In this document: one piece after another, positions 8,103 to 56,600 of the stretch | Numbering within the stretch: the first letter of the stretch is position 1 | Layout of the letters: each line of letters opens with the position of its first letter | Source of the DNA: Ruminococcus sp. Phil11 | GTDB taxonomy: Bacteria; Bacillota; Clostridia; Oscillospirales; Ruminococcaceae | DNA length: 64,000 bases | Direction of reading: 5' to 3' | Assembly (NCBI GenBank): GCA_001940925.1 | Contig: MSGZ01000042.1 | Location: 128,970 to 192,969 of the forward strand | Made by a program: the position numbers and the translations under genes | Notes under the pieces: model-generated | Told to the model about the DNA's origin: nothing | What the model saw: only the letters and a program-made list of their open reading frames with translations | Database searches by the model: none

Positions 8103-8121
8103 ATTCGTATAGTATGCGAAT
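8103..8121. promoter_or_regulatory. Palindromic operator candidate before the serpin array
   Basis: The arms ATTCGTATA (8103-8111) and TATGCGAAT (8113-8121) form a 19-bp palindrome with one mismatch, centred on G8112. It ends on the first base of the -35 box, a position where a bound dimer would block RNA polymerase or where an activator could act. No matching copy was found before serpin 7. The binding protein is unknown. Confidence 0.5.
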
Positions 8122-8149
8122 TGAAACATCTTGCGCGAAGTGGTAAGAT
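8121..8149 (+). promoter_or_regulatory. Sigma-A-type promoter of the serpin array
   Basis: TTGAAA (8121-8126) and TAAGAT (8144-8149) are 17 bases apart. Transcription would start near 8156 and give a leader of about 60 bases with AAGGAGG (8205-8211) before the ATG at 8218. It is the only good promoter seen before the six serpin genes. Confidence 0.65.
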
Positions 8150-8217: not shown

Positions 8218-9780
8218 ATGAAACACAAAAAAATATTATCCGCCGTGCTTGCAGCCTGCATGTTAGCGGGCAGCAGCATCGCAAGTCTTCCGGCATCGGC
8301 TGAGAACGGCGACACCGGAATTCTCCCTTACGAATCCTACCGCGAATACGGTGACGTCAATCTCGATCTGAGCGTCGATGTCGCAGACGCAGTCGTGATT
8401 GCCAGATTCTATGCAATGGATTATACCCTTCAGATCACCGATCTGGGCAAGCAGCTTGGCGACGTCAATCTGGACGGCAATCTGGACGACGACGATCTGA
8501 AACAGGTGCTCGAATTCATTGCGCACAAGCGTACCCAACTCGGTGTTGCTGACAAACCGGTCGAGCATCTTTATCAGGCGGTCAACCTCACAGAGCAGAC
8601 AGAATCCGGCACGGCCACAGGCAAGGAAGCGGACGAAGCCTTCATCAGCAGCCAGATGAAGCTGACCGTCGGTCTGTTCAAGGGCTCGGCGGCTGACAGA
8701 CAGTCCGAAGGACAGAATGTGCTGATCTCGCCGCTGTCCATTTCGCAGGCACTGGCGATGACCGCAAACGGCGCGAACGGCGAAACGAGAACCGAAATGG
8801 AAAAGCTCCTCGGCGATACGATCAAAATGGATGAGCTGAACCAGTATTACTACGACTACACGGCAGACCTCACCGGCAGCGAAGATGCCGCGCTGCATCT
8901 TGCCAATTCGATCTGGATCAATAACAAAAGCGAAACCCTGCAGGTTCGCACCCCGTTCCTGCAGACCGCCAAGGACTACTACCGTTCCGAGGTGTTCGCT
9001 GCCCCGTTCGATGACAGCACCCTCAATGACGTCAACAGCTGGGTGAACACCAACACGCATGAGATGATCCCGAAGCTGCTTGACAGGCTCGACCCGCAAA
9101 CACAAATGATCCTCATCAATGCACTGGCCTTTGAAGCGGAATGGTACAACCCCTACCGCGCAGACCGTGAATATGACAGAACCTTCCATGCGGATACCGG
9201 TGACATGACCGCGACGCTGATGTACTCCGATGAAAGAACCTATCTGGAGGACGAAAAAGCGACCGGCTTCATCAAGCCGTACGAGGGCGGCCGTTACAGC
9301 TTTGCGGCGCTCCTGCCGAACGAGGATGTTTCTCTCAGCGAGTACATCGAAGGCATGACGCCGGAATCGCTGCAGGCATTCCTGAACAGCAAACGGTCTG
9401 AAGAAGTTGTTGCAGCGATCCCGAAGTTCGAGGACGACTATTCGATCACCCTGGACGATGTGCTGAAAAAGCTCAGCATGGAAAGCGCGTTCACGGACGG
9501 CGCAGACTTCTCTGAGCTGAATGCAAAAAAAGACTCGAAGATCGACACTGTGCTCCACAAGACCTTTGTGAAGGTCGATGAGCGCGGAACGAAGGCCGGC
9601 GCAGTCACGGCGGTCATGATTGCACCGACCAGTGCAATCCCGGAAGATACGCCTCAGCCGAAGTACGTGATCCTTGACCGTCCGTTCATCTATATGATCC
9701 TTGACAACAAAACGAATCTTCCTGCCTTTATCGGCTATGTCCTGCACCCGACAGCCGTTGAAGCAGCAGAAACCGAATGA
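8218..9780 (+). CDS. Dockerin-serpin 1 (first of tandem array)
   Basis: This is a secreted serine-protease inhibitor of the serpin family carried by a dockerin, 520 residues long. The signal peptide is residues 1-28. The dockerin (about 44-107) has two Ca-binding repeats, GDVNLDLSVDVADAV and GDVNLDGNLDDDDL. The serpin domain (about 138-515) shows NVLISPLSISQALAMTANGA, LILINALAFEAEW-type breach strands and the C-terminal LDRPFIYMI. The hinge ERGTKAGAVT has small residues at P12-P9, as in inhibitory serpins. Counting from the hinge places P1-P1' at Thr-Ser. The ATG at 8218, with AAGGAGG upstream, replaces an in-frame ATG at 8194 that would precede the signal peptide. It lacks the LAGSC cysteine of its neighbours (LAGSS). 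Confidence 0.9.
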   Translation: MKHKKILSAVLAACMLAGSSIASLPASAENGDTGILPYESYREYGDVNLDLSVDVADAVVIARFYAMDYTLQITDLGKQLGDVNLDGNLDDDDLKQVLEFIAHKRTQLGVADKPVEHLYQAVNLTEQTESGTATGKEADEAFISSQMKLTVGLFKGSAADRQSEGQNVLISPLSISQALAMTANGANGETRTEMEKLLGDTIKMDELNQYYYDYTADLTGSEDAALHLANSIWINNKSETLQVRTPFLQTAKDYYRSEVFAAPFDDSTLNDVNSWVNTNTHEMIPKLLDRLDPQTQMILINALAFEAEWYNPYRADREYDRTFHADTGDMTATLMYSDERTYLEDEKATGFIKPYEGGRYSFAALLPNEDVSLSEYIEGMTPESLQAFLNSKRSEEVVAAIPKFEDDYSITLDDVLKKLSMESAFTDGADFSELNAKKDSKIDTVLHKTFVKVDERGTKAGAVTAVMIAPTSAIPEDTPQPKYVILDRPFIYMILDNKTNLPAFIGYVLHPTAVEAAETE

Positions 9781-9806
9781 CCCATGATCCAAAGGAGGGT
9801 AACATC

Positions 9807-11333
9807 ATGAAATTCAGAAAAGCTTTATCCGCACTGCTTGCAGTTTGTACGCTGGCAGGCAGCTGCATCACACCGGCGGCCGTTTCTGCCGATCTCGCAG
9901 AGCCCCGCGAAATCGTCTACGGCGACGTCAACCTCGATGAAAAGGTCGATGTTTCGGATGCGGTCATGATCGCAAGATTCTATGTCATGGACTGGGGTCT
10001 GGAGATCACCGATACCGGCAAAAAGCAGGGTGACGTCAATCTGGACGGCAATCTGGACGACGACGATATGCTCGCAGTCCTGCAGTATATCGCCCGCAAG
10101 CGCACACAGCTCGGCGTAAAGGAAGAACGGCAGGAGCAGCAATACAATTCCGTCAACCTGACGGAAGCGGTCGCAGCCGGAGAGGCTTCCGGCAAGGAGG
10201 CAGATGAAGCCTTCATCAGCAGCCAGATGAAGCTGACCGTTGATCTGTTCCGGGAAGCCGCCGCCGATCAGCAGTCCGAGGGCAAAGATGTCCTGATCTC
10301 GCCGCTGTCCGTTTCGCAGGCACTCGCGATGACCGCGAACGGCGCAGACGGCGAAACGAAAACCGAAATGGAAAAGCTGCTCGGCGATACGATCGATATC
10401 GACACGCTGAACCAGTATTATTACGACTACACGGAAAGGCTTACCGGCGGTGAGGACCCGGCACTGCATCTTGCAAACTCCCTCTGGGTGAACAAGGACG
10501 AAAACCGCATCAAGGTGCCGCAGACCTTCCTGCAGACCACGAAGGATTACTACCATGCGGAAGCATTCTCCACGCCGTTCGATGACAGCACCGTCAAGGA
10601 CGTCAACAACTGGGTGAATTTCCACACGCATGAGATGATCCCGAAGCTGCTTGAGAAGTGCAATCCGGATTGGGTCATGATGCTGGTCAATGCGCTGGCA
10701 TTTGAGGCGGAATGGTCGGAGCCCTACGAACGCATGAACATCCGCAACAACACCTTCCATGCCTATGACGGTGACATGACCGTCGAGATGATGAGTTCAG
10801 AGGAAGGCCGCTACATCTCCGATGAAAACGCAGTCGGCTTCATCAAGCCGTACAAGGGCGGCCAGTACAGCTTCGCGGCAGTCCTGCCGAATGAGAACAT
10901 GACCGTTTCGCAGTATGTTGACGCCATGACGCCGGAATCCCTGCAGAAGCTGCTCAGCAGTGCAACCAATGATACGGTCTACGCAAGGCTGCCGAAGTTC
11001 ACGTATGACTACGATCTCATCATGAACGACGTCCTGCAGGATCTCGGTATGAAAAAAGCATTCGGCGATGCAGATTTCTCGCGGCTCACTTCCGTCGGCT
11101 GCCCAAATATCGACATGGTGCTGCACAAGACCTTCATTCAGGTCGATGAGCGCGGAACGAAGGCCGGTGCGGTCACAGCCGTCATGTTGGCAGAGTGCGT
11201 CGCGGAGGATCCGCCGCAGCCGAAGTACGTCTATCTTGACCGTCCGTTCATCTACATGATCCTGGACAACAAGACGAATCTGCCGGTGTTCATCGGCTAT
11301 GTCCTGCACCCGACAGCTGTTGAAGCTGAATAA
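9807..11333 (+). CDS. Dockerin-serpin 2
   Basis: This 508-residue secreted serpin follows serpin 1 after 26 bases. The signal peptide (MKFRKALSALLAVCTLAGSC, cleavage near VSA) is followed by an N-terminal dockerin (GDVNLDEKVDVSDAVMIARF and GDVNLDGNLDDDDM) and a full serpin domain with LISPLSVSQALAMTANGADG and LDRPFIYMI. The hinge ERGTKAGAVT is identical to serpin 1, but the loop beyond it changes to AVMLAECVAED, which puts P1-P1' at Cys-Val by the usual count. The ATG at 9807 has AAAGGAGGG upstream; an in-frame ATG at 9777 lies in the serpin 1 stop and is rejected. The Cys at P1 could also be redox-sensitive; that is inference. Confidence 0.9.
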   Translation: MKFRKALSALLAVCTLAGSCITPAAVSADLAEPREIVYGDVNLDEKVDVSDAVMIARFYVMDWGLEITDTGKKQGDVNLDGNLDDDDMLAVLQYIARKRTQLGVKEERQEQQYNSVNLTEAVAAGEASGKEADEAFISSQMKLTVDLFREAAADQQSEGKDVLISPLSVSQALAMTANGADGETKTEMEKLLGDTIDIDTLNQYYYDYTERLTGGEDPALHLANSLWVNKDENRIKVPQTFLQTTKDYYHAEAFSTPFDDSTVKDVNNWVNFHTHEMIPKLLEKCNPDWVMMLVNALAFEAEWSEPYERMNIRNNTFHAYDGDMTVEMMSSEEGRYISDENAVGFIKPYKGGQYSFAAVLPNENMTVSQYVDAMTPESLQKLLSSATNDTVYARLPKFTYDYDLIMNDVLQDLGMKKAFGDADFSRLTSVGCPNIDMVLHKTFIQVDERGTKAGAVTAVMLAECVAEDPPQPKYVYLDRPFIYMILDNKTNLPVFIGYVLHPTAVEAE

Positions 11334-11372
11334 CACACACCCGACCGGACATCTGTTCAAGGAGGAATCATT

Positions 11373-12890
11373 ATGAAGATCCGGAGAGCTTTATCTGCAC
11401 TGCTGGCCGTCGGCGTACTGGCAGGCAGCTGCATCACACCGCTGGCCGTCTCAGCCGACAATGACGAACCCCGTCAGATCCTGTACGGCGACTTCAATCA
11501 GGACGAAAAGATCGACGTCACGGACGCGGTCATGATCGCAAGATTCTATGTCATGGACTATGATCTCGTCGTGACCGATCAGGGCAAGCTGCAGGCTGAC
11601 GTCAATCAGGACGGCAACATCGACGACACCGATCTGATTCAGGTACTGGAGTACATCGCACGCAAGCGCACCGTCCTCGGATATGAGGAGGAGAAAAAGG
11701 TGGAATACAAGGCAAAGAACCTGATGAGCGGCATTGAGGCTAAGACCCCTGCTGCTAAGGCCGCTGACGAGACTTTCATCGACAGCCAGCTGAAGCTGAC
11801 CGTCGATCTGCTGAAGGGCGCAGCCGCCGACGAACAGTCAAAGGACAAGGATCTGCTGATCTCGCCGCTGTCCGTCTCGCAGGCGATCGCCATGGCAACA
11901 AACGGCGCAAAGGGCGATACGAAAACCGAAATGGAAAAGCTGCTCGGCGATACGCTGGACATTGACGCGCTGAACCAGTATTACTATGACTACACGACGA
12001 AGCTGACCAAAGCGGATAACGCAAAGCTCAGCCTTGCCAATTCGCTGTGGATCAAGGATGACCCCGAGGCAATTCAGGTGCCGCAGACATTCCTGCAGAC
12101 GACCAGAGATTACTACGGCGCAGACGCATTCATGGCACCGTTTGATCAAACGACCGTCAAGGACGTCAACAACTGGGTGAATCTGAACACGCATGAGATG
12201 ATCCCGAAGGTCATTGAAAAAATGGATCCGAACTGGATCATGCTGCTGATCAATGCGCTGGCCTTTGAAGCGGAATGGGCAAAGCCTTACTATAAAGAGG
12301 ATGTGCAGGAAACGACCTTCCACGCCTATGACGGCGACATGAAGGCTGACATGATGTACTCCCACGAGTATTGCTATCTGCATGATGACAAGGCATCCGG
12401 CTTCATGAAGCACTATAAGGGCGGCGATTACAGCTTCGCAGCGATCCTGCCGGACGAAGGCATTTCGGTCAATGAATACATCGAAGGCATGACCGCCGAT
12501 TCGATCAAAAAGATCCTGAACAGCAAGAGCAATGAGCTCGTGTATACGAGGCTTCCGAAGTTCAAGTATGACTACTCGATCACGATGAACGATATGCTGC
12601 AGGCACTCGGCATGAAGCTGGCCTTTGAAAGAGGCACAGCAGATTTCAAGGGCCTGAACACCATTGAGCAGACCTACATTGACCTTGTCGTGCACAAGAC
12701 CTTCATTCAGGTCGATGAGCGCGGCACGAAGGCCGGCGCGGTCACGATGATCGCAATGGATGGCAACGCCGTCATGCCGGAGCCGAAGTATGTGTATCTT
12801 GACCGTCCGTTCATCTACATGATCGTGGACAACAGCACGAATCTGCCGGTATTCATCGGCTATGTCCTGCATCCGGTCGCAGGAAAATGA
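11373..12890 (+). CDS. Dockerin-serpin 3
   Basis: This 505-residue secreted serpin lies 39 bases after serpin 2. The signal peptide contains LAGSC, and the dockerin (GDFNQDEKIDVTDAVMIARF and ADVNQDGNIDDTDL) has Gln in place of Leu at the repeat position NxD. The serpin scaffold is complete (LISPLSVSQAIAMATNGAKG, LINALAFEAEW, LDRPFIYMI). The hinge ERGTKAGAVT is intact, followed by MIAMDGNAVMPEPK, which gives P1-P1' as Asn-Ala by counting. The loop is shorter than in serpin 1. Its last 39 bases open a 133-base perfect repeat that recurs at the serpin 4/5 junction. Confidence 0.9.
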   Translation: MKIRRALSALLAVGVLAGSCITPLAVSADNDEPRQILYGDFNQDEKIDVTDAVMIARFYVMDYDLVVTDQGKLQADVNQDGNIDDTDLIQVLEYIARKRTVLGYEEEKKVEYKAKNLMSGIEAKTPAAKAADETFIDSQLKLTVDLLKGAAADEQSKDKDLLISPLSVSQAIAMATNGAKGDTKTEMEKLLGDTLDIDALNQYYYDYTTKLTKADNAKLSLANSLWIKDDPEAIQVPQTFLQTTRDYYGADAFMAPFDQTTVKDVNNWVNLNTHEMIPKVIEKMDPNWIMLLINALAFEAEWAKPYYKEDVQETTFHAYDGDMKADMMYSHEYCYLHDDKASGFMKHYKGGDYSFAAILPDEGISVNEYIEGMTADSIKKILNSKSNELVYTRLPKFKYDYSITMNDMLQALGMKLAFERGTADFKGLNTIEQTYIDLVVHKTFIQVDERGTKAGAVTMIAMDGNAVMPEPKYVYLDRPFIYMIVDNSTNLPVFIGYVLHPVAGK

Positions 12891-12984
12891 TCCTGCTCCC
12901 TGAAAAGGAGGAAACAGCATGAAAATCCGAAAAGCTCTGACAGCATCGCTTGCATCCGTCATTCTTGCAGGCAGCTGCATCACA
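12852..12984 (+). repeat. 133-bp perfect direct repeat, copy 1
   Basis: The 133 bases from 12852 to 12984 are identical to 14395-14527, an offset of 1543 bases. Each copy covers the last codons of one serpin, the 28-base spacer with AAAAGGAGG, and the first 22 codons of the next. The match ends sharply (C at 12985 against T at 14528). It shows recent unequal crossing-over or gene conversion. Confidence 0.95.
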
Positions 12985-14433
12985 CCGGCGGCTGTTTATG
13001 CAAACGACCCGCCGCTTTACGGCGACGTCAATCTGGACAGTTCCGTTGACGTTTCGGATGCCGTAATGGTCGCAAGGTTCTGCGTCATGGATGCAGGGCT
13101 TCAGATCACGGATTACGGCAAAGCCTGCGGTGATGTCAACGCAGACAGCAAGCTGGACGACAAAGACCTGATGAAGCTCCTGCGGTTCATTGCAAAGCAG
13201 GTCACACGCAGCGAGCTCGGAATGCCCGATACAGACGAACCCCGTCAGCAGCGGTCTGTCAGTCTCATGGAGGGGATCGAACCGCAGCTGGCAAATGAAA
13301 AGGCTCCCGACCGTCAGTTCATCGCAAGCCAGATGAAGCTGACCGCCGACCTGCTGAAGGCCGCGGCCAATGACCCGCAGTCCGCAGGCAAAAACCTGAT
13401 GATCTCGCCGCTGTCCGTTTCGCAGGCACTCGCCATGACCGCGAACGGCGCAAACGGCAACACGAAAGCGGAAATGGAACAGCTGCTCGGCGATACGATT
13501 GATCTCGAAACGCTGAACCGATATTATGCCGGCTACACGGCAAAGCTTTCCCGCTCGGAAAAGGTGAAGCTGAATCTTGCCAATGCGATCTGGATCAAGG
13601 ATGACAGCAGGCTGATTCAGGTGCCGGAGGCATTCCTGCAGACAACCGCCGACTATTATCATGCGGACGCCTACAAGGCACCGTTCAATGATACAACGGC
13701 TGCGGATATCAACGGCTGGGTCTATGAAAACACCTTCGGAATGATCCCGGAGCTGGTGGATGATATCAACCCGGACACGGTCATGATGCTGGTCAATGCT
13801 GTCGCCTTTGACGGAGAATGGGCAAGTCCGTTCACCCTGATCGAGGAGGACGAACCGCAGCTGTTCCACGCTTATGACGGCGACATGTCCGCCGATATGA
13901 TGCGCGGCAGCGGAACCTGCTATCTGCAGGATGAACACGCGACCGGCTTCATCAAGCGGTATGCAGGCGGCTACAGCTTTGCAGGCATCCTGCCGGATGA
14001 AGATGTTACGGTCTCCGATTATCTGGACAGCATGACCGGCGAATCCCTGCAGGCAATGCTTGACAGCAAAGATTATGCCGATGTGATCGTCACGATGCCG
14101 AAGTTCAGCGATTCCTACGATATCCTGATGAACGATATGCTGATGACACTCGGCATGAAGGACGCATTCGACCCTGCCGCCGCTGACCTCACCGGACTGA
14201 ACGCACTCGGCAACACCTGCATTGACTTCGTCCTGCACAAGACCTTTATCGAGGTCAACGAAAAAGGCACAAAAGCAGCAGCCGTGACCGGAAACGGTAC
14301 GGTCGCCGGTGCAATCAGGACGACGCCGCAGTATATCACGCTCGACCGCCCGTTCCTCTACATGATCCTTGACAACAACACGAATCTGCCGGTGTTCATC
14401 GGCTATGTCCTGCATCCGGTCGCAGGAAAATGA
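12919..14433 (+). CDS. Dockerin-serpin 4
   Basis: This 504-residue secreted serpin lies 28 bases after serpin 3. Its first 22 codons are identical in DNA to those of serpin 5. The dockerin (GDVNLDSSVDVSDAVMVARF and GDVNADSKLDDKDL) is the most divergent of the tandem set in its second half. The serpin domain has LMISPLSVSQALAMTANGA and LDRPFLYMI. The hinge is EKGTKAAAVT instead of ERGTKAGAVT, and the loop GNGTVAGAIRTTP gives P1-P1' as Gly-Ala by counting. Gly or a neighbouring Val/Ala at the scissile bond would suit an elastase-like or subtilisin-like target, which is inference. Confidence 0.9.
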   Translation: MKIRKALTASLASVILAGSCITPAAVYANDPPLYGDVNLDSSVDVSDAVMVARFCVMDAGLQITDYGKACGDVNADSKLDDKDLMKLLRFIAKQVTRSELGMPDTDEPRQQRSVSLMEGIEPQLANEKAPDRQFIASQMKLTADLLKAAANDPQSAGKNLMISPLSVSQALAMTANGANGNTKAEMEQLLGDTIDLETLNRYYAGYTAKLSRSEKVKLNLANAIWIKDDSRLIQVPEAFLQTTADYYHADAYKAPFNDTTAADINGWVYENTFGMIPELVDDINPDTVMMLVNAVAFDGEWASPFTLIEEDEPQLFHAYDGDMSADMMRGSGTCYLQDEHATGFIKRYAGGYSFAGILPDEDVTVSDYLDSMTGESLQAMLDSKDYADVIVTMPKFSDSYDILMNDMLMTLGMKDAFDPAAADLTGLNALGNTCIDFVLHKTFIEVNEKGTKAAAVTGNGTVAGAIRTTPQYITLDRPFLYMILDNNTNLPVFIGYVLHPVAGK

Positions 14434-14527
14434 TCCTGCTCCCTGAAAAGGAGGAAACAGCATGAAAATCCGAAAAGCTCTGACAGCATCGCTTGCATCC
14501 GTCATTCTTGCAGGCAGCTGCATCACA
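14395..14527 (+). repeat. 133-bp perfect direct repeat, copy 2
   Basis: This is the second copy of the repeat at 12852-12984, at the serpin 4/5 junction. Recombination between the two copies would delete or duplicate exactly one serpin gene (1543 bases). Confidence 0.95.
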
Positions 14528-15982
14528 TCGGCGGCCGCACTGACGCCGGTCATCACCTACGGCGACGTCAACCTTGACACCGTTGTCGATGTCTCAGACG
14601 CCGTCATGATCGCAAGATTCTACGTGCAGGATTTCAGCCTGCAGATCACCGACGTCGGCAAAATGCAGGCGGACGTCAATCTGGACAGAAACATTGACAT
14701 TGACGACATGACATGCGTGCTCGAATACATCGCGCACAAGCGGACAGCACTCGGCATCCCGGAGCAGAAGATCGAGCCGAAGTATCAGGCAGAAAACCTG
14801 ACCGACGGCGTAACGGCGGACAATACCTCTGCAAAGGCATCAGACGAAGCCTTCATCGCATCGCAGATGAAGCTGACCGCAGGACTGTTCAGCGGCGCGG
14901 CGCTCGACCCGCTGACGACGGACAATATGCTGATCTCGCCGCTGTCCATTTCGCAGGCACTTGCCATGACCGCGAACGGCGCAGAGGAGAACACGAAAAC
15001 CGAAATGGAAAAGCTGCTCGGCGATACGATCGACATTGAAACGCTGAACCAGTATTATCTTGGCTATACCGAGAGACTGACCGCCACCGACGAGCTCCAC
15101 CTTGCCAATTCGCTCTGGATCCGCGACAATGAACACCGCATCACCGTGCCGGAAGCATTCCTGCAGACCGCGTCGGGCTACTACAAGGCAGACGCGTTCA
15201 AGGCACCGTTTGACGGCAGCACCGTCACGGACGTCAACAACTGGGTCGGTGCCAACACCCACGGCATGATCAACAAGCTGATCGACAGAATTGACCCGAA
15301 CTGGATCATGCTGCTGATCAACGCACTGGCGTTTGAAGCGGATTGGGAAACGCCTTATCCGGCAAGCAGCATCCACAACGGCACATTCCATGCCTACGAC
15401 GGCGACATGACCGCCGAGATGATGTACGGCGAAGTAAGCAGCTACATTGAGGACGAATACGCGACCGGCTTCATCAAGGCATACAAGGGCGGAAAGTACA
15501 GCTTCGCGGCCGTGCTCCCGAAGCAGGAAGCATCCGTGACCGTTTCCGATTACGCCGGCATGATGACCGGTGAATCCCTGCAGAAGCTGCTCAGCAGCAA
15601 GCAGGATGCATCTGTCCGGACGATGCTGCCGAAGTTCAAGTACGACTACACGATCACCCTGAATGACACGCTGAAAGCACTCGGCATGAAGGACGCCTTC
15701 GTTTATCCGATCGCGCGCTTCGGGAAACTGAACAGTGCCAATCCGCTGACCTTTGTGGATCTGGTGCTGCACAAGACCTTCATTCAGGTCGATGACCGCG
15801 GAACGAAGGCCGGAGCCGTGACAATGGTCGCCATGGCAGACAGAGCGATCGACCCGCGTGAGGTCAAAACGGTTTATCTTGACCGCCCGTTCATTTACAT
15901 GATCCTTGACAATGAGACAAACCTGCCTGTATTCATCGGCACTGTCATGCACCCGACAGCCGCCGAGGTAACGGAAGACTGA
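14462..15982 (+). CDS. Dockerin-serpin 5
   Basis: This 506-residue secreted serpin lies 28 bases after serpin 4, with the same spacer sequence as between serpins 3 and 4. The dockerin reads GDVNLDTVVDVSDAVMIARF and ADVNLDRNIDIDDM. The serpin domain has MLISPLSISQALAMTANGAE and LDRPFIYMI. The hinge is DRGTKAGAVT and the loop MVAMADRAIDPRE puts Arg-Ala at P1-P1', which is the pattern of an inhibitor of trypsin-like or Arg-specific proteases. The signal peptide contains LAGSC but the following residues (AAALT) give a poorer signal peptidase I site than in its neighbours. Confidence 0.9.
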   Translation: MKIRKALTASLASVILAGSCITSAAALTPVITYGDVNLDTVVDVSDAVMIARFYVQDFSLQITDVGKMQADVNLDRNIDIDDMTCVLEYIAHKRTALGIPEQKIEPKYQAENLTDGVTADNTSAKASDEAFIASQMKLTAGLFSGAALDPLTTDNMLISPLSISQALAMTANGAEENTKTEMEKLLGDTIDIETLNQYYLGYTERLTATDELHLANSLWIRDNEHRITVPEAFLQTASGYYKADAFKAPFDGSTVTDVNNWVGANTHGMINKLIDRIDPNWIMLLINALAFEADWETPYPASSIHNGTFHAYDGDMTAEMMYGEVSSYIEDEYATGFIKAYKGGKYSFAAVLPKQEASVTVSDYAGMMTGESLQKLLSSKQDASVRTMLPKFKYDYTITLNDTLKALGMKDAFVYPIARFGKLNSANPLTFVDLVLHKTFIQVDDRGTKAGAVTMVAMADRAIDPREVKTVYLDRPFIYMILDNETNLPVFIGTVMHPTAAEVTED

Positions 15983-15993
15983 AACAAACGCAA

Positions 15994-16025
15994 CCGAGCC
16001 TGCCCGGGGATCCGGACGGGCTCGG
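15994..16025 (+). other. Hairpin between serpins 5 and 6
   Basis: CCGAG (15994-15998) pairs with CTCGG (16021-16025) and CCCG (16003-16006) with CGGG (16017-16020). No T-run follows, so it is more likely an RNA-processing or stability element than a full terminator. It marks the only wide gap (78 bases) in the array. Confidence 0.45.
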
Positions 16026-16060
16026 CTCCGTGAACTGATAACCGAAAAGGAGGAACCATC

Positions 16061-18310
16061 ATGAAATTCCAGAAATTCATCGCAGCAATCATGTCCCTTT
16101 GCATCCTGACGGGAGGCTGCTTTACGCCTTCCGCATTTGCAGCAGATACGCCGGCTTCCGGAGAAGTCACCGTCACAAAGTACGGCGATGCGACCGTTGA
16201 CGGCACGGTCGATGTCTCCGACGCGGTGCTGGTCGCGAGATTTGCCGCATCCGACAGAACCGCGGTCATCACCGACACCGGCAGACTGAATGCGGACGTC
16301 AATCTGGACGGCAACACCGACGGCGAGGACGTCACGCAGATCCTTGAGTTTATCGCGAAAAAGCGCACCTATCTCGGCAAGGAGGAATCAGGCAGCGCGC
16401 AGGGCTATCACCGGTACAGCCTGACCGAGAACCTCACCGCGCATGAAGTCCCGGACAAACCCGTTGACGATGCATTCGTCAAGAGCCAGTATGACATGAC
16501 CGCCAAGCTGATGAAGCAGATCTCGTTCGATGATACAGAGGCCGAGAATATCCTGCTCTCACCGCTGTCGATCGCATCCGCACTGGCGCTTGCCGTCAAC
16601 GGCGCAAACGGCGAAACTCTGACAGAGCTCCGGAATTTCCTTGTCGGCGAGGACATCGACACGGAATCCGTCAACGAGTATTACCGCAATTATATTTCCA
16701 ATCTCCCGAGCAGCGACAAAGCAAAGCTGCATCTTGCCAATTCGGTCTGGAACAGCAATGAGCTGACGCTCCGCGAGGACTATCTGAAAACGATCGTCAA
16801 TTACTACGATCATACGGATATTTTCAATGCTCCGTTCACCGACGATACGCTGAAGGACATCAACAGCTGGATCTACGACAATACGGACGGCAAGATCAAG
16901 GATATGCTGAAATACATGGACGGAAACGCCGTGACCTATCTCATCAATGCACTGGCCTTTGATGCGGAATGGGAGAACGAATGGAACACGACACTGAAGG
17001 GTGTATTTGCCGACTACAACGAAGCCGGGCAGACCGTTGATATGATGATGGGTACCGAAAAATACTACATCTCCGACCAGTATGCTGAGGGCTTTGTCAA
17101 GCAGTATTCCGGCGGCACCTACAGCTTTGTCGGTATCCTGCCGAGAGAATCGCTGTCAGTCACCCTCTCCGATTACATCGGAATGATGGACGGAAAGACG
17201 CTGCAGAAGCTGCTTGACAGCCGCAAGGAGGAAGCCGTCAGCGTCACAATGCCGAAGTTCAAGTTCGATTACGAGACCGGAGACACACTGCTCACGCAGG
17301 CGCTGCAGAAGCTCGGCGTCAAGCAGGCATTCGAGTGCGGACAGGCAAATTTCGGCCGGATGTATGTGGATTCTGACGGCAGCAACGACCCCTATATCAG
17401 CAGAGTGATCCACAATACCTGCATCGACGTCAACGAAAAAGGCACCGAAGCTGCCGCGGCCACGATCATTGAGATGACCCAGAAGGGCGGCGGCCCGTCT
17501 GTCCCGTCCCTGAACTTCAACCGCCCGTTCCTTTTCATGATCCTTGACGAACGCACCAAGCTGCCGGTCTTTATCGGAAGCGTGAAGAACCCGCAGAGTG
17601 AGACGGAAGAACCGCAGCAGCAGCAGAATGATCTGCAGCCGGGAAAAGTCCGCTTCACGGTCGTCGATGACAAGACCGGTGAGCCGATCGAGCTTCCTTC
17701 GCAGGGAACCCCGCTCGGCATCGAAACCAATATCGAATACGATACACCGAACGGCCGCGTCAGTACCGGCCCGATCATCGCCATTTCTTCCAATCCACAT
17801 ATCGAAGATAATTTCGCCGGCTTCTTCAATGCGGATTACTTCGGAATGCGCATTGAAGAATACACCGTTCCGGCTGCTTACCGCGTACCGGACAACGCGC
17901 TCACATGGGTGAAGCATGACAACGGCTCCTACGACGTCACAGTGAAGCTGCAGTATCTCGGCGAGCTGAAAGAGAATGAGGTTCGCTTCACGGTCGTTGA
18001 CCTGTACACCCGTGAGCTGATCCCGCTTTCGGAACAGAATATGATGATCGTCGAATCCGGACCCAAAGAATTTGACCCGGAGAATGCCGTGATCGGCAGC
18101 CCGGTGTTCGGCCTGAAGGAAAACCCGGCGGTTGACAAATCCGGCGCATTTGCAAGGCTCTGCAGCTCCGATTCCGTCGAGCTGACCGTGCACAATACCC
18201 TGATCCCGGAAGGCTATGAGCTGCCGGAGGCTTATCTCTACAAAATCAAACACGGCAACGGCTCCTACGATGTCGTGATTCAGCTGAAACCGATCATAAT
18301 GGTGCCGTAA
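16061..18310 (+). CDS. Dockerin-serpin 6 with two C-terminal repeats
   Basis: At 749 residues this is the longest serpin here. The signal peptide (LTGGC then AFAA) is followed by a dockerin at about residues 41-105 (GDATVDGTVDVSDAVLVARF and ADVNLDGNTDGEDV), a serpin domain to about 515, a Gln-rich linker (EEPQQQQN) and two 111-residue repeats at 528-638 and 639-749. Each repeat starts with RFTVVD and ends in a HxNGSYDV segment, like small beta-sandwich (SpaA/Cna-B-type) domains. The hinge EKGTEAAAAT is the closest of the set to classical inhibitory serpins; the loop IIEMTQKGGG puts Lys-Gly at P1-P1', suggesting a trypsin-like target. The start has AAGGAGG at 16047. Confidence 0.9.
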   Translation: MKFQKFIAAIMSLCILTGGCFTPSAFAADTPASGEVTVTKYGDATVDGTVDVSDAVLVARFAASDRTAVITDTGRLNADVNLDGNTDGEDVTQILEFIAKKRTYLGKEESGSAQGYHRYSLTENLTAHEVPDKPVDDAFVKSQYDMTAKLMKQISFDDTEAENILLSPLSIASALALAVNGANGETLTELRNFLVGEDIDTESVNEYYRNYISNLPSSDKAKLHLANSVWNSNELTLREDYLKTIVNYYDHTDIFNAPFTDDTLKDINSWIYDNTDGKIKDMLKYMDGNAVTYLINALAFDAEWENEWNTTLKGVFADYNEAGQTVDMMMGTEKYYISDQYAEGFVKQYSGGTYSFVGILPRESLSVTLSDYIGMMDGKTLQKLLDSRKEEAVSVTMPKFKFDYETGDTLLTQALQKLGVKQAFECGQANFGRMYVDSDGSNDPYISRVIHNTCIDVNEKGTEAAAATIIEMTQKGGGPSVPSLNFNRPFLFMILDERTKLPVFIGSVKNPQSETEEPQQQQNDLQPGKVRFTVVDDKTGEPIELPSQGTPLGIETNIEYDTPNGRVSTGPIIAISSNPHIEDNFAGFFNADYFGMRIEEYTVPAAYRVPDNALTWVKHDNGSYDVTVKLQYLGELKENEVRFTVVDLYTRELIPLSEQNMMIVESGPKEFDPENAVIGSPVFGLKENPAVDKSGAFARLCSSDSVELTVHNTLIPEGYELPEAYLYKIKHGNGSYDVVIQLKPIIMVP
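17642..18307 (+). repeat. Two 111-residue tandem repeats in serpin 6
   Basis: Bases 17642-17974 and 17975-18307 encode two in-frame copies of 111 residues. They share the frame RFTVVD at the start, a central P-rich turn and HxNGSYDV near the end, but have diverged strongly between these anchors. They are absent from the other six serpins. Confidence 0.75.
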
Positions 18311-18330
18311 AACACCCGCACAGACAAAGA

Positions 18331-18363
18331 AGCTGCCGCCCCGCAGAGGGACGGCAGCTTTTT
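18331..18363 (+). terminator. Terminator of the serpin array
   Basis: AGCTGCCG (18331-18338) pairs with CGGCAGCT (18352-18359) and TTTTT follows. It stands between the convergent serpins 6 and 7, and on the minus strand the stem is followed by TCTTTGTCTG, so weak bidirectional function is possible. Confidence 0.85.
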
Positions 18364-18388
18364 GCGCTTTCATCAGTTGATTTTGGAA

Positions 18389-20053
18389 TCATTCCTGCCA
18401 TTCCGGCTTCATCACATAGCCGATGAACAGCGGAAGCTCCGTTTTGTTATCAACGATCATATAGATAAACGGATGATCGAGGATGACATCCTTTGTCTGG
18501 ATCATAGCACCGCCGCCCAAGCCGATCCCGGTCGCGGCAGCTGCTCTGGTACCGGCCTCATCGACCTCGATGCGGGTCTTTTGCAGTACCTTGTTGATCC
18601 ACGTCGGCGGAAGCTCATTCAGTCCGGTGAAATCAGACAAGTTCGCGTCAAAGGCAGCCTTCACGCCGAGTGCCTTCATCACAGGAATCAGATCGACGCT
18701 GTAATCCGAGCTGAACTTCGGGATTGCAGCAGTCACTGCACATTCTTCCTTGTTCGCGAACAGTTCCTTCAGGGACTCCCCTGTCATGCCCGCGATGCAT
18801 TCCTGTACGGAGCTGTTCTCCTTCGGCAGCAGACCGACAAAGCTGTAGCCCTCACCGGCATACGGCCGCATGAAGCCGGTCATACTGTCATTTTCGAGAT
18901 AAATGCTTTCCTGACTGGACATCAGCTTTGCACGCACGACCCGTTCGTTATCCGGCTCTGCAGTTTCGGAACCACGCAGCTCCGCAACATCCGTCCCGAA
19001 CGGCACTTCATATTGCCAGCCGCCGGCGAACGGATTAGCATCAGACGGGTACGGACCGATCTCCTCATAAGCGGCGTCATAATCTGCGCCCTCGCAGAGA
19101 TAGAACCAGCGTTCCTGCACCTGATAATCCTCGTATGGCGTTTTCCACTCCGCATCAAAATAAAGCGCATTCACAAGCATCATGACCGACGACGGATCAA
19201 GACTTTCAATGATCTCCGGTATCATGCCGTTTGTCTTTTCTTTCACCCAGCCGTTGATATCATCTGTCGTCTGTTGATTGAACGGTGAACGGAACACATC
19301 GGAGTCAAAATAATCCTTTGTCGTCTGCAGATAATTCTGCGGCACTTTGATTTTATTGTCATCATCAATGAACCAGATCGCATTCGCAATGTCAAGCTTG
19401 GCCTTTTCGCTCTGCGGCAGATTCGCAGCATAACCGCTGTAATACTGATTCAGGTCATCCATGCTCAGATCGCCGCCCAGCAGCTTTGTGAGCTCATCCT
19501 GCGTATTGCCCTTTGCGCCGTTCGCTGCCATGGAAAGTGCCTGCGAGAACGAAAACGGCGAGATCATGACATTATTGCCCGGCTCCTCTTTTTTGCTGAT
19601 CTCTTTCAGAAGGCTTGCCGTCAGATCATACTGGCTTACCCGGAACGCATTGTCCGCCTGCTTTCCGCTCTGCGCCGAGCGTGTCAGGCCGTCCATGAGG
19701 TTCACGGTTTTCGTCAGCTTTTCCGCGGGCTGCTGCTGCGTCATGACGGAAAACTCTATGCGCTTTTTGGCAATATACTCCAAAATCTCCTGCATATCCG
19801 CAGAATCCAGGTTTCTGTCACCGTTGACGTCGGCGTTTGCCCTTCCGGTATCGGTGATGGTTGCCAAAGCATCCTCCGCACAGAATCTTGCGACCAGCAC
19901 CGCATCCGCCACATCAACTTTCCCGCTGCAGTCCGCATCGCCCCACGGCAGACAGCCCGGAAGCTGATCCGCAAGTACGGAAAACGGTGCCATGCAGCTT
20001 GCCGCCAGCATACAAGCTGCCAGCAGAATCCCGTGTTGTTTGGTATGTTTCAT
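18389..20053 (-). CDS. Dockerin-serpin 7, convergent with the array
   Basis: This 554-residue secreted serpin faces the array. It has a signal peptide (LAASC then VLA), an N-terminal dockerin (GDADCSGKVDVADAVLVARF and ADVNGDRNLDSADM) and a serpin domain with MISPFSFSQALSMAANGAKG and LDHPFIYMI. Compared with the others it carries about 45 extra residues between WFYLCEG and VVRAKLMSSQ, where the rest have a short turn; this insertion is acidic and contains two prolines. The hinge is EAGTRAAAAT and the loop GIGLGGGAMIQ gives Gly-Ala at P1-P1'. The ATG at 20053 has AAGGAGG upstream; an in-frame ATG at 20137 would add 28 residues before the signal peptide and is rejected. Confidence 0.9.
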   Translation of the reverse strand: MKHTKQHGILLAACMLAASCMAPFSVLADQLPGCLPWGDADCSGKVDVADAVLVARFCAEDALATITDTGRANADVNGDRNLDSADMQEILEYIAKKRIEFSVMTQQQPAEKLTKTVNLMDGLTRSAQSGKQADNAFRVSQYDLTASLLKEISKKEEPGNNVMISPFSFSQALSMAANGAKGNTQDELTKLLGGDLSMDDLNQYYSGYAANLPQSEKAKLDIANAIWFIDDDNKIKVPQNYLQTTKDYFDSDVFRSPFNQQTTDDINGWVKEKTNGMIPEIIESLDPSSVMMLVNALYFDAEWKTPYEDYQVQERWFYLCEGADYDAAYEEIGPYPSDANPFAGGWQYEVPFGTDVAELRGSETAEPDNERVVRAKLMSSQESIYLENDSMTGFMRPYAGEGYSFVGLLPKENSSVQECIAGMTGESLKELFANKEECAVTAAIPKFSSDYSVDLIPVMKALGVKAAFDANLSDFTGLNELPPTWINKVLQKTRIEVDEAGTRAAAATGIGLGGGAMIQTKDVILDHPFIYMIVDNKTELPLFIGYVMKPEWQE

Positions 20054-20092: not shown

Positions 20093-20121
20093 ATTATAGA
20101 AAAATAGGAAGTTCCTGTCAA
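20093..20121 (-). promoter_or_regulatory. Consensus promoter of serpin 7
   Basis: Read on the minus strand, TTGACA (20121-20116) and TATAAT (20098-20093) are 17 bases apart, a perfect sigma-A promoter. The start point would be near 20086, about 33 bases before the ATG. The -35 box and spacer lie inside the 3' arm of the hydF terminator hairpin. Confidence 0.85.
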
Positions 20122-53680: not shown

Positions 53681-56600
53681 TTATCCCTTCGCGATCTTCA
53701 GGATCTCATACAAATCGGAAAGCGTAATCTGTCCGTCACCGTCAAGATCGGCAGCCTCCGCAGCCTGACCCGGCAGCATCATGCCGCCGCCCTCTGCAAG
53801 CCAGCGGCTGAGCGTCTGGCCGTCATCGTCATTGACAAGACCGTCTCCGGTCAGATCTCCGCGCACGGAGCAGTCCGGATCAAGTGCCGAGAAGCAGTAG
53901 CCGTTCTCATCGCAGAATGCCTCAACAGCACCGCCGGGCGTCCCGTAGATCGTGACCGTTCCGACAAAAAAATCCCGGCCGTGCCATGTCAGCATCCCGA
54001 ACAGCTCATAAAATTGCGCGGTAATGCCGGTCTCCGGGTCGGTCACCGTTTCCGGCAGTATATAACCGCACTGATCCGGCGGGAGCGAGATCACAGAAAA
54101 CGTGCCGTCCGTATCGGTCTGGAAGCCGTAGCCGTTCTGCTCAAAGCAGATGACCGGCACCTTTTCCGTAATCCGGACTGACGCATCCTTCTTCGGTTCA
54201 ATATCCGCTTCCGGCCAGTTCATCAGGGAGACAAACCGGATCGTTTCGCCCTTTTTCATCGGGAAGCAGATCCTGCCCGCGGAAACCGTCTTTTTGTCAG
54301 ACGCATACCGCAGCAGCGTGCAGCAGTATTTGTCGTAATTGCTCATATCCAGATAATACGTCCCGTCAGCCGGTGCCGTAAAGCTGAGCTGATTCCGGCT
54401 GCCGGGAACATCGGGCTTGAGCGGCACATCCTGCCCGAGCGTCATAGCGACGGCGGTTTCATCATCATACACCATGTTCAGCGGCGGTGCGACATAATAC
54501 TCATAAAGCACCTCGCCGGCGTAATCGCCGCAGCCGCGGAGATACAGGATATTATATCCGAACTGTGCCGGTGAATCGCTGACCAGCATCGTATAATCAT
54601 AGCCTGCCGTCAGCTCGGTGGCACCGTCAAACACATGAATCTCCGGCAGTTCCCCGCGGCCGTCCCATTGCAGGAGCTTCTCTCCCGTGATTTTGCAGGA
54701 CGACAGCGCGGTCATGCCCTCCGCAACCGAGAAACGGACGGTGCCGGTCTCCTGCGGTGCCGCCAGCGATGCCGCGACATAATACTGTTCACCGGCCTGA
54801 ACCGGGAACACGGTGCTCTGTCTGCCGATGCCGGTCACTTTGCCGACCGTGAAACCTCTGCTGTCCAGCAGCCTGACGGCCGCATCCGGGACGGACTCCT
54901 TCAGAATGCAGCAGCTTCTGCCGGACGGCACCCAGCTGTACAGAACCGTATCGCCCGGCACGGCAATGTCGGCATCCGTCGTACCCGGCGTGATATCGGT
55001 GAGCAGTACGGGCTCCGGCATCACGATCGTACAGCAGGCGGTCAGCGTACCGGTGAATTCCCCGAGACCGGTCAGCTGCAGGTAATACTCCCCGCAATCG
55101 CGGCAATCGCCGTTCATGCGCATTTCGTAATCGGCATTTTCCGTGAGCACCCGCCCCTGATAAGTGACGCGGAAGGTCGGACGCTGCGGCTTTCCGGTAT
55201 AATCCAAAGTCACCGGCTCCGCTTCGGCATCCGCAATCAGAAGCTTCTTCCCCGCCGATCTCAGGCGGTAGCTGTGCGGCTTGCCGTCCGCCGGCCTGAT
55301 CCCGATATACACTTCCTGATACCGCTGAAGTTTCCGCGCATAGCGGTAAGAAAGGCGCATCCCGCACGCCCCGTTCGTATCCTTGTCAAAATAATACGCA
55401 CATTCAAACGCGGAGCCGTCCTCGGAAACGATCTCCGGCACAGGCTCGCTGCCCTGCTGCACATACCGGAACACCGCGGCATTGCCGCCGCAGGTAAACG
55501 GTTCATCGGCCCTGATATCCGCGGCATTGTTAAAATCATAATGCAGTCTCTGCGTCAGGATCTTACAGCCGGCGCAGTTTCCCTTTCCGTTCAGCAGCCA
55601 GCGGACATCACCCGGCAGCAAAGCGTCCGGACGCACCCATTCGTAATCCTCCCCTGCCGTAAGGACAACCGGCTCCGGCAGAACATAATCCGGATCGTTG
55701 TCGGCTCCGTTCAGGTCAAGGTCAGGCGTATAACACAGCACCTCCGGCGGGCAGTCCGGCTCTGCACCGGTGAAATCCGCTTCTTCCGCCCGGAAAACCG
55801 CATAGCCGAGATAATTCCGGTCACCGAGCGGCTCTGCGTTCAGCACATAGCTGCGGCCGCTGTTTTCCCGGATATACAGCATCAGATAGACCGGCTCCCC
55901 TGCCGTAAACTGACAGAGATACTGCTCTGTGATGCTGAGTGTATTGTCTGCTTCCATGCGATTCAGATTTCTGTCCCAGATCAGCAGATCGACATTCATC
56001 GTTTCGGTCGTCATGGGCTCCGGGAGCCTGTCCGGCTCGCCCGGCGTCAGACTGATGACATATTTTCCGCTCTGCGCCGGATCCAGACGGAACAGCCGCG
56101 AGCTGAAGCCCTCCGCAGTCAGCCGCACGGGGGTCCCTTCGGAAAACGACTCCGCATCCCATGCGCTTTGATACAGAATACCGGCGTACATGCCGATGCC
56201 GACTGCATAGATCTCCGTGATGCCCGGCTTCTCCGCAAAACGGTAACGAAGCACATAATCCGTTCCCTGCTGCAGAACAGTACCCTGATCCTTCACGGTC
56301 ACGGCGGGCGGCTCCTGATCCGGCTGATAGTCCCGGATCGCAAGTCCCGTTTCGAGCAGAGCATCCGCGAGCGTGCGCTTCGGGTATAATTCCGTCACAA
56401 GCACCGCATTCGCTGCGCGTGAACCGAGATCGCGGAGCGACATTGTGACCGTTTCTCCGGCGGTCAGCCGCACATGCATGAGCTGATCCGGTGCCGCGCC
56501 GCTGCCTGTCTGCACAAAGGCTGCTCCGAATGCCGGCTTGACCGTCAGCTCTGCCGCGGGATTCACCGCATAGCAGATATAGTCGCCGTCATGCGGTGCC

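What the first reader, a model, noticed from the sequence alone, without database searches (positions are those of the whole stretch)
8218..20053. Seven dockerin-serpins with conserved scaffolds and divergent reactive loops
All seven have a signal peptide, an N-terminal dockerin and a full serpin domain. The hinge (E-x-G-T-x-A-[AG]-A-[AV]-T) is conserved and of inhibitory type, but the loop beyond it changes in each. Counting P15 from the hinge Gly, the predicted P1-P1' pairs are T-S, C-V, N-A, G-A, R-A, K-G and G-A for serpins 1 to 7. These loops are 2 to 7 residues longer than that of alpha-1-antitrypsin, so the exact scissile bond is uncertain. The pattern suggests duplication followed by re-targeting to different proteases on the cellulosome.
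Basis: partly seen in the sequence, partly recalled or inferred. Interest (0 to 1): 0.88.

Follow-up and report, generated by a model that had tools for sequence, protein, structure and literature searches.

The report
Cellulosome serpins, each with different bait
A rumen bacterium carries a row of seven plug-in protease inhibitors for its plant-digesting machine that share one body but carry different bait loops, which looks like a ready-made panel against many different protein-cutting enzymes.

Summary
The seven Doc-serpins are real (8218-20053). All seven match Pfam Serpin (E 8e-76 to 6e-87); six of seven pass the Dockerin_1 cut-off, and serpin 1's dockerin shows only by alignment. The register is supported: in 164 distinct related loops, position +15 from the hinge Gly is small in 90%, and P6 and P4 are mostly hydrophobic.

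A related genome (G015) holds the same seven genes. Its loops are nearly identical (8 of 97 residues differ; omega 0.34 against 0.20 for the scaffold; P 0.09), so the loops are not changing fast now. Between paralogs the loop is the most or second most variable window and gains non-synonymous changes about twice as fast as the scaffold. Across ten arrays, neighbours share P1 less often than chance (3 pairs against 8.6, P 0.008; second lowest of 148 variable columns). This was not significant in non-dockerin serpin arrays.

Best reading: tengpin-like inhibitory serpins docked on a Ruminococcus-type cellulosome, kept as a non-redundant specificity panel. Targets are unknown; the window's subtilase (53681-60031) is not favoured. 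Cellulosomal serpins and loop-diversified serpin arrays are known separately; the bacterial combination is a new variant.

The parts
8121..8149 (+). promoter-like site upstream of serpin 1 (TTGAAA-17-TAAGAT, extended -10)
   Evidence: consensus match only (15 promoter-like sites found in the region, shuffle mean 7.5, sd 2.4)
8218..9780 (+). serpin 1 (520 aa): signal-like N-terminus, dockerin, tengpin-like N-tail, serpin; P1-P1' T-S at 9628-9633
   Evidence: Pfam Serpin 4.5e-86; dockerin by alignment only
9807..11333 (+). serpin 2 (508 aa from 9807; upstream ATG at 9777); P1-P1' C-V at 11196-11201
   Evidence: Serpin 5.8e-87, Dockerin_1 1.2e-06 (both scanned from 9777)
11373..12890 (+). serpin 3 (505 aa); P1-P1' N-A at 12765-12770; the protein modelled
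   Evidence: Serpin 2.1e-85, Dockerin_1 1.8e-08
12919..14433 (+). serpin 4 (504 aa); P1-P1' G-A at 14308-14313; atypical P6 N and P4 T
   Evidence: Serpin 6.6e-86, Dockerin_1 3.1e-06
14398..14521 (+). conversion tract, approximate: last 33 nt of serpin 4, the intergenic gap and about the first 60 nt of serpin 5 are copies of the serpin 3 end / gap / serpin 4 start (100% identical there, unlike in G015)
14462..15982 (+). serpin 5 (506 aa); P1-P1' R-A at 15842-15847
   Evidence: Serpin 8.4e-76, Dockerin_1 4.1e-05
16061..18310 (+). serpin 6 (749 aa) with repeated C-terminal extension (about 17594-18307); P1-P1' K-G at 17483-17488
   Evidence: Serpin 1.2e-79, Dockerin_1 3.7e-05
18330..18360 (.). 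13-pair terminator-like stem between the convergent serpins 6 and 7 (listed on the - strand)
   Evidence: consensus match (17 found in the region, shuffle mean 13.3)
18389..20053 (-). serpin 7 (554 aa), opposite strand, about 50-residue insert at 18935-19084; P1-P1' G-A at 18506-18511
   Evidence: Serpin 3.5e-83, Dockerin_1 6.6e-06
20093..20121 (-). perfect sigma-70 consensus (TTGACA-17-TATAAT) upstream of serpin 7, so probably a separate transcription unit
   Evidence: consensus match only
8344..8550 (+). serpin 1 dockerin (the others: 9915-10121, 11481-11687, 13015-13221, 14555-14761, 16178-16384 on +, 19742-19948 on -)
   Evidence: alignment (70% mean column identity)

Best explanation
The cluster encodes seven secreted, inhibitory, tengpin-like serpins that dock by near-equivalent N-terminal dockerins onto a Ruminococcus flavefaciens-type cellulosome. 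Serpins 1-6 look like one operon and serpin 7 a separate convergent unit. Each serpin offers a different scissile bond on the same suicide-trap scaffold. A protease that attacks the complex cleaves the bait it prefers, the loop inserts into sheet A, and the protease is trapped. The copies are kept because each covers a P1 class its neighbours do not: T, C, N, G, R, K, plus a second G with quite different flanks. Shown here by sequence: architecture, loop register, mostly hydrophobic insertion-facing residues, loop variability above the scaffold, P1 non-redundancy in ten arrays, one gene-conversion tract, and shared dockerin class. Inferred: secretion, cohesin binding, inhibition, and the nature of the proteases (most likely external rumen proteases of mixed specificity, with the bacterium's own cellulosomal subtilases second).
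For: Fold and family: Pfam; the best solved relative is native tengpin 2PEE by sequence profile (2.3e-152) and by model (46% identity, TMt 0.91; model pLDDT 80.8 with the loop unstructured at 454-467). Inhibitory design: canonical P15-P8 hinge in 7 of 7; P6 V or I in 152 and P4 large hydrophobic in 81% of 164 loops, P1' small in 90%. Diversification. One-of-each pattern: 3 same-P1 pairs against 8.63 expected of 61, P 0.0076; obs/exp 0.35, second lowest of 148 variable columns, whose median is 1.32. Location: 23 cohesin matches (21 over the cut-off) and at least 149 dockerins in the genome; the serpin dockerins score with a class of 71 matches at 59 bits or more whose scanned partners include GH9, GH10, GH11, GH26 and LRR proteins; in R. 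flavefaciens FD-1 a group 6b Doc-serpin dockerin is listed as binding the ScaC cohesin only (PMC5301203, passages). Functional precedent: a C. thermocellum cellulosomal serpin inhibits subtilisin (PMC6718151, a review passage).
Against: No inhibition data exist for these proteins in anything I saw. Serpin 4 lacks the hydrophobic P6/P4 pair and may be a poor inhibitor. Siropins are cut at P3-P2 or P6-P5, not at nominal P1 (PMC5127057, passages), so P1 identity may not equal specificity. Loops are nearly frozen between sister genomes. Pooled loop omega is below 1. In 30 loci of non-dockerin, mostly lipoprotein serpins the P1 test was not significant (3 against 4.3, P 0.35), although P2 was the lowest of 174 columns. 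The window's array supplies 21 of the 61 pairs in the P1 test. Loops were found by a hinge pattern (P15-P8), so hinge conservation in the 164-loop and 43-sequence sets is partly by construction; 18 of 229 frames, 4 of them Doc-serpin frames, gave no readable loop.
Confidence: 0.6

Rival explanations
1. Housekeeping control of the bacterium's own cellulosomal proteases: the serpins restrain dockerin-bearing subtilases made by the same cell.
For: At least three of the five S8 subtilases found in the genome lie in frames with dockerins; one (C24:10436, 1620 aa) carries the serpin dockerin class at 71.5 bits. Doc-serpin number tracks S8 number over 30 genomes (rho 0.60, p 0.0005; 0.38, p 0.04 after genome size). 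The C. thermocellum serpin inhibits subtilisin (PMC6718151, review passage).
Against: P1 is aromatic or large hydrophobic in only 4% of 164 loops, unlike the usual subtilisin preference (recalled); five subtilases would not obviously need seven differing baits; the correlation ignores phylogeny and shrinks with genome size; the window's own subtilase has no listed dockerin of the serpin class.
Confidence: 0.2
2. Relaxed drift: extra copies persist by dosage and their loops wander because only the hinge and scaffold are constrained.
For: Pooled loop omega 0.60 with a wide interval; P1 identity changes often on the family tree (at least 15 changes for 19 N rows, 26 for 33 G rows).
Against: P1' stays small in 90%, P4 and P6 mostly hydrophobic; loops are conserved between orthologs; array neighbours differ at P1 more than at all but one of 148 variable columns; the K-type ortholog clade keeps P1 K in four genomes.
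Confidence: 0.13
3. Non-inhibitory or decoy role: the loops are sacrificial substrates or the serpins are structural or adhesion modules of the cellulosome.
For: Serpin 4's P6 N and P4 T; some relatives have no readable canonical hinge; dockerins also carry LRR modules and proteins without other Pfam domains.
Against: The hinge is canonical in all seven at P15-P8, with hinge omega 0.07-0.08 in the window's array.
Confidence: 0.07

Closest known systems
Cellulosomal serpins of Clostridium thermocellum (PinA and its neighbour) and R. flavefaciens FD-1 Doc-serpins (ORF01368/01369)
   Same: Secreted, dockerin plus inhibitory-type serpin; FD-1 has two consecutive Doc-serpin ORFs of dockerin group 6b (PMC2930009, passages); C. 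thermocellum has two cellulosomal serpins and one membrane serpin (PMC6718151, review passage).
   Different: Seven copies with systematically different bait residues, against two or three; plus two further serpins, lipoprotein-like, elsewhere in this genome.
Tengpin (2PEE, 2PEF), group T bacterial serpins
   Same: Closest solved structure by sequence and by model, including the N-terminal tail that in tengpin holds the native state (PMC8233489, passages).
   Different: Here a dockerin sits directly upstream of that tail; the tail is only weakly conserved.
Loop-diversified serpin arrays of mammals (mouse Spi-2, bovine SERPINA3, SERPINA tandem arrays against snake venom)
   Same: Tandem paralogs with a conserved body and markedly divergent reactive loops (PMC4593666, passages; PMC12646145, search listing only).
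   Different: Bacterial, operon-like, docked on an extracellular enzyme complex.
Dpi of C. cellulolyticum, a dockerin-bearing protease inhibitor
   Same: Plug-in inhibitor that protects cellulosomal cellulases (PMC12484212, review passage).
   Different: A single inhibitor, and to my recollection of another (cystatin-like) family.

Membership tests
Serpin superfamily (inhibitory) | serpin fold over the full domain | tested here: met
   Pfam 7 of 7; serpin 3 model matches native tengpin, TMt 0.91. Only serpins 3 and 6 were modelled; the serpin 6 model was poor (pLDDT 50.1).
Serpin superfamily (inhibitory) | inhibitory hinge with small residues P15-P8 | tested here: met
   7 of 7; P17 is D in serpin 5
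Serpin superfamily (inhibitory) | 17-residue spacing to a scissile bond with small P1' | tested here: met
   90% small at +15 over 164 loops; 6 of 7 in the window, serpin 2 has V at P1'
Serpin superfamily (inhibitory) | loop insertion and covalent complex with protease | not testable with these tools
   needs recombinant protein
Cellulosomal (dockerin) serpins | dockerin module | tested here: met
   6 of 7 over the Pfam cut-off; serpin 1 by alignment only
Cellulosomal (dockerin) serpins | producer has cohesin scaffoldins | tested here: met
   23 cohesin matches, 21 over the cut-off; 30 of 30 genus genomes have cohesins
Cellulosomal (dockerin) serpins | binds a cohesin; inhibits subtilisin-like proteases | not testable with these tools
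   literature only, for relatives
Tengpin-like group T serpins | N-terminal native-state tail | tested here: inconclusive
   The tail aligns with 2PEE and one Leu is 90% pair-conserved, but the tail as a whole is only 27% pair-identical
Loop-diversified serpin arrays | tandem paralogs with loop more variable than body | tested here: met
Loop-diversified serpin arrays | positive selection on the loop | tested here: inconclusive
   omega 1.19 (serpins 1-5) or 1.21 (nine pairs) in this array; 0.60 (0.26-0.97) over six arrays; 0.34 between orthologs

The most novel reading that the evidence does not exclude
Ruminococcus serpin arrays are a bacterial specificity repertoire with a 'one-of-each' rule: selection keeps the P1 residue different between array neighbours even though the array recombines (one gene-conversion tract across gene ends is seen), so the cellulosome carries a swappable, non-redundant anti-protease panel, comparable to vertebrate diversified serpin clusters.
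Probability: 0.35. Interest if true: 0.75.

Novelty: new variant of a known kind. Interest (0 to 1): 0.6.

Why it matters
Why some cellulosomes carry protease inhibitors is still argued from few examples. An array in which one body presents different baits turns that into a testable matrix: seven serpins against a panel of proteases, with predictions fixed in advance by P1. It would show that bacteria, too, diversify serpin loops by tandem duplication, and it offers dockable inhibitors of graded specificity for protecting designer cellulosomes.

Tried and rejected
Chance resemblance: rejected (Pfam E of 8.4e-76 or less for all seven). Current positive selection on the loops: not supported between orthologs. 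Positive selection between paralogs: suggestive in this array only. The window's subtilase at 53681-60031 as docking partner: not favoured. Doc-serpin count following cohesin count: not significant after genome size (rho 0.18, p 0.33). Replication of the P1 rule in non-dockerin arrays: not significant. Mobile-element origin: a tblastn of serpin 3 in plasmids gave only matches below 60% identity and none covering 80% of the query; not pursued. Structure of the serpin 6 extension: model too poor to use, not searched further. A C30 cohesin-dockerin protein as ScaC-like adaptor: not tested, no reference ScaC at hand.

Rows dropped before counts: one search compared serpin 1 only from residue 147 on, because my start choice for its ortholog was wrong (its loop was compared). 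One search left out G015 (near copy of the window), lipoproteins, R. flavefaciens ND2009, and two array genes without a readable loop (G006_6861, G018_2554). One search used 211 of 229 serpin frames with a readable loop of at least 24 residues and reduced them to 164 distinct loops; the 229 include duplicates, since records of the genome collection repeat some of the genus genomes. One search left out L056, L098, L151, L051, L060, L082, all DOC rows, and loops identical to one already seen. One search used pairs of at least 55% scaffold identity: six of ten arrays, 24 pairs. Doc-serpin counts were tallied by hand; serpin loci were fetched by place from 24 of the 25 other genomes with serpins.
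Full report
OBSERVATION. All seven match Pfam Serpin; six do so over nearly the whole profile in one stretch, and serpin 7 in two stretches because of an insert of about 50 residues. Dockerin_1 passes its cut-off in six; serpin 1's dockerin is visible in the alignment with both Ca-binding repeats. Gaps between serpins 1 to 6 are 26, 39, 28, 28 and 78 nt on one strand. Serpin 7 is convergent, with a terminator-like stem between it and serpin 6 and a perfect sigma-70 consensus upstream of it, so the cluster is probably one operon plus one separate unit. The genome (G000) has two more serpins in tandem on contig C40 beside a sigma-factor-like gene; one has a lipobox by script, the other by eye, and the sigma assignment is by eye.

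REGISTER. I aligned 164 distinct loops on the hinge Gly (from 229 serpin frames: the window, 40 loci of this genome and 24 genus relatives, and 78 loci of the genome collection, with duplicates between these). Position +15 is A, G, S, T or C in 90%, against 55% at +14 and 59% at +16. P6 is large hydrophobic in 95% and P4 in 81%, as expected for residues that face inward once the loop inserts (general serpin knowledge, recalled). These positions were not part of the pattern by which loops were found; P15-P8 were. This supports P1 at +14, with the extra length on the primed side. Serpin 4 (P6 N, P4 T) is the exception in the window. A caution: siropins are cut upstream of the nominal P1 by elastase and proteinase 3 (PMC5127057, passages).

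EVOLUTION. Genome G015 carries the same seven genes in the same order. Its contig length equals that of a sheep omasum MAG contig (L079) with the same loops, which I take to be the same record. Loops of the seven ortholog pairs differ at 8 of 97 residues; omega is 0.34 against 0.195 in the scaffold and 0.08 in the hinge, and same-sized scaffold blocks reach 8 differences in 9% of draws. So the loops are now constrained. Among paralogs the picture is different. P3-P3' has mean mismatch 0.85 over all 903 pairs of 43 sequences and 0.73 over 64 close pairs (scaffold 0.52 and 0.33), with none or one of 305-311 scaffold windows at least as variable. In serpins 1-5 the loop has omega 1.19 between hinge 0.07 and tail 0.19 (pairs are not independent and synonymous sites are near saturation). 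Over six arrays loop pN is about 2.2 times scaffold pN (1.83-2.50), with loop omega 0.60 (0.26-0.97). I conclude faster loop evolution after duplication, then constraint; positive selection is not shown.

ONE-OF-EACH. Across ten Doc-serpin arrays (36 genes, 61 within-array pairs) only 3 pairs share P1, against 8.63 expected under shuffling (P 0.0076). As a control for relatedness I computed the same ratio at every variable column: the median is 1.32, P1 is 0.35, and one column of 148 is lower. In 30 loci of non-dockerin, mostly lipoprotein serpins (66 genes, 42 pairs) P1 is 0.70, with 6 of 174 columns as low counting itself, and the shuffle test is not significant (P 0.35), while P2 is the lowest column. 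The rule is therefore supported for Doc-serpins and only hinted at elsewhere. On a tree built without loop residues, some ortholog groups keep P1 (the K group of G016, G025, G019 and G027; the serpin 7 group of three rows, all G), one keeps it in three of four rows (serpin 6 group: K, K, K, and Q in a G005 paralog), and one changes it (serpin 5: R in the window and G015, N in G005).

RECOMBINATION. In the window the last 33 nt of serpin 4, the gap after it and about the first 60 nt of serpin 5 are identical to the end of serpin 3, its gap and the start of serpin 4. In G015 the end of serpin 4 (85% there) and the start of serpin 5 differ, while the rest of both genes matches the window's. This is a recent gene conversion across gene ends in the window's lineage; it explains in part the low synonymous difference of the serpin 3 and 4 tails (pS 0.14). 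It stops short of the loops. The distal part of serpin 7 (18500-19500) is 83-85% identical to G015, with adjacent 500-nt windows at 93-94%.

LOCATION. The genome has 23 cohesin matches and at least 149 dockerins (150 of 291 candidates scored). A profile of the seven serpin dockerins finds 71 matches at 59 bits or more; below that, scores fall from 53 to 36 within seven rows. Where the class ends is my choice. I scanned 18 of the 71 parent proteins, many of them cut at the locus edge: they include GH9, GH10, GH11, GH26, LRR, a GDSL esterase, a cohesin-dockerin protein and a subtilase; four showed only a dockerin. In R. flavefaciens FD-1 a group 6b Doc-serpin dockerin is listed as binding only the ScaC adaptor cohesin (PMC5301203, passages). 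Whether ScaC is the partner here was not tested.

STRUCTURE. The best solved relative is tengpin in the native state. Its N-terminal tail, which stabilises the native state (PMC8233489, passages), aligns with the segment between dockerin and serpin domain here. One Leu is strongly conserved but the tail as a whole is not, so a latch role is possible, not shown.

LITERATURE. Dockerin plus serpin in 21 listed papers and serpin plus Ruminococcus (165 papers, 25 listed): where the passages I opened give a number, it is two or three cellulosomal serpins in a genome (FD-1; C. thermocellum); others mention them without a count. Searches for prokaryotic serpin paralogs in tandem, and for hypervariable loops under positive selection, gave no bacterial array in the rows listed (15 of 18,424; 2 of 2). 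I read no whole paper; subscription papers are mostly not in the library, and the PinA paper is not held.

VERDICT.

Noticed in passing
164 loops, for example window 11196-11198 (serpin 2), L049, L057, L061, L067, L069: Cys lies at P1 or P1' in 29 of 164 distinct loops (17.7%) against 0.7% Cys per residue in the rest of the domain; the state needs at least 19 changes on the scaffold tree, and the pair E-C (10 rows) at least 7. This recalls the acidic-P1, Cys-P1' loops of CrmA and SERPINB9 (recalled). Possibly redox-sensitive bait or cysteine-protease traps.
   Followed up: partly
L057 (G000:C40:52000-62000), L002: Two tandem lipoprotein-like serpins (P1-P1' C-A and N-G) beside a sigma-factor-like gene: a membrane-anchored counterpart of the docked array.
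   Followed up: partly
L058, L061, L062, L072: Short degenerate serpins (367-378 aa, serpin match in two weak pieces, no readable loop) sit inside lipoprotein-serpin arrays in four genomes.
   Followed up: no
window 17594-18307; L040:6001-8904; L047:5225-7123: Serpin 6's C-terminal extension is a repeat that appears to vary in number (about two here, about four in G005, one in G001; by eye) and matched no Pfam family at E 0.001.
   Followed up: partly
window 18500-19500 against L039: Local divergence island in serpin 7 (83-85% identity, adjacent windows 93-94%), as if a different allele had been brought in.
   Followed up: partly
alignment, reference column 178 (counted from 0) of the serpin 3 domain: One scaffold column is even less shared between array neighbours than P1 (2 pairs against 6.8); possibly an exosite.
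   Followed up: no
G000:C24:8500-15500 (L246): A 1620-aa subtilase frame with PA, Fn3-like and lipocalin-like domains carries the same dockerin class as the serpins: the best own-protease candidate target.
   Followed up: partly
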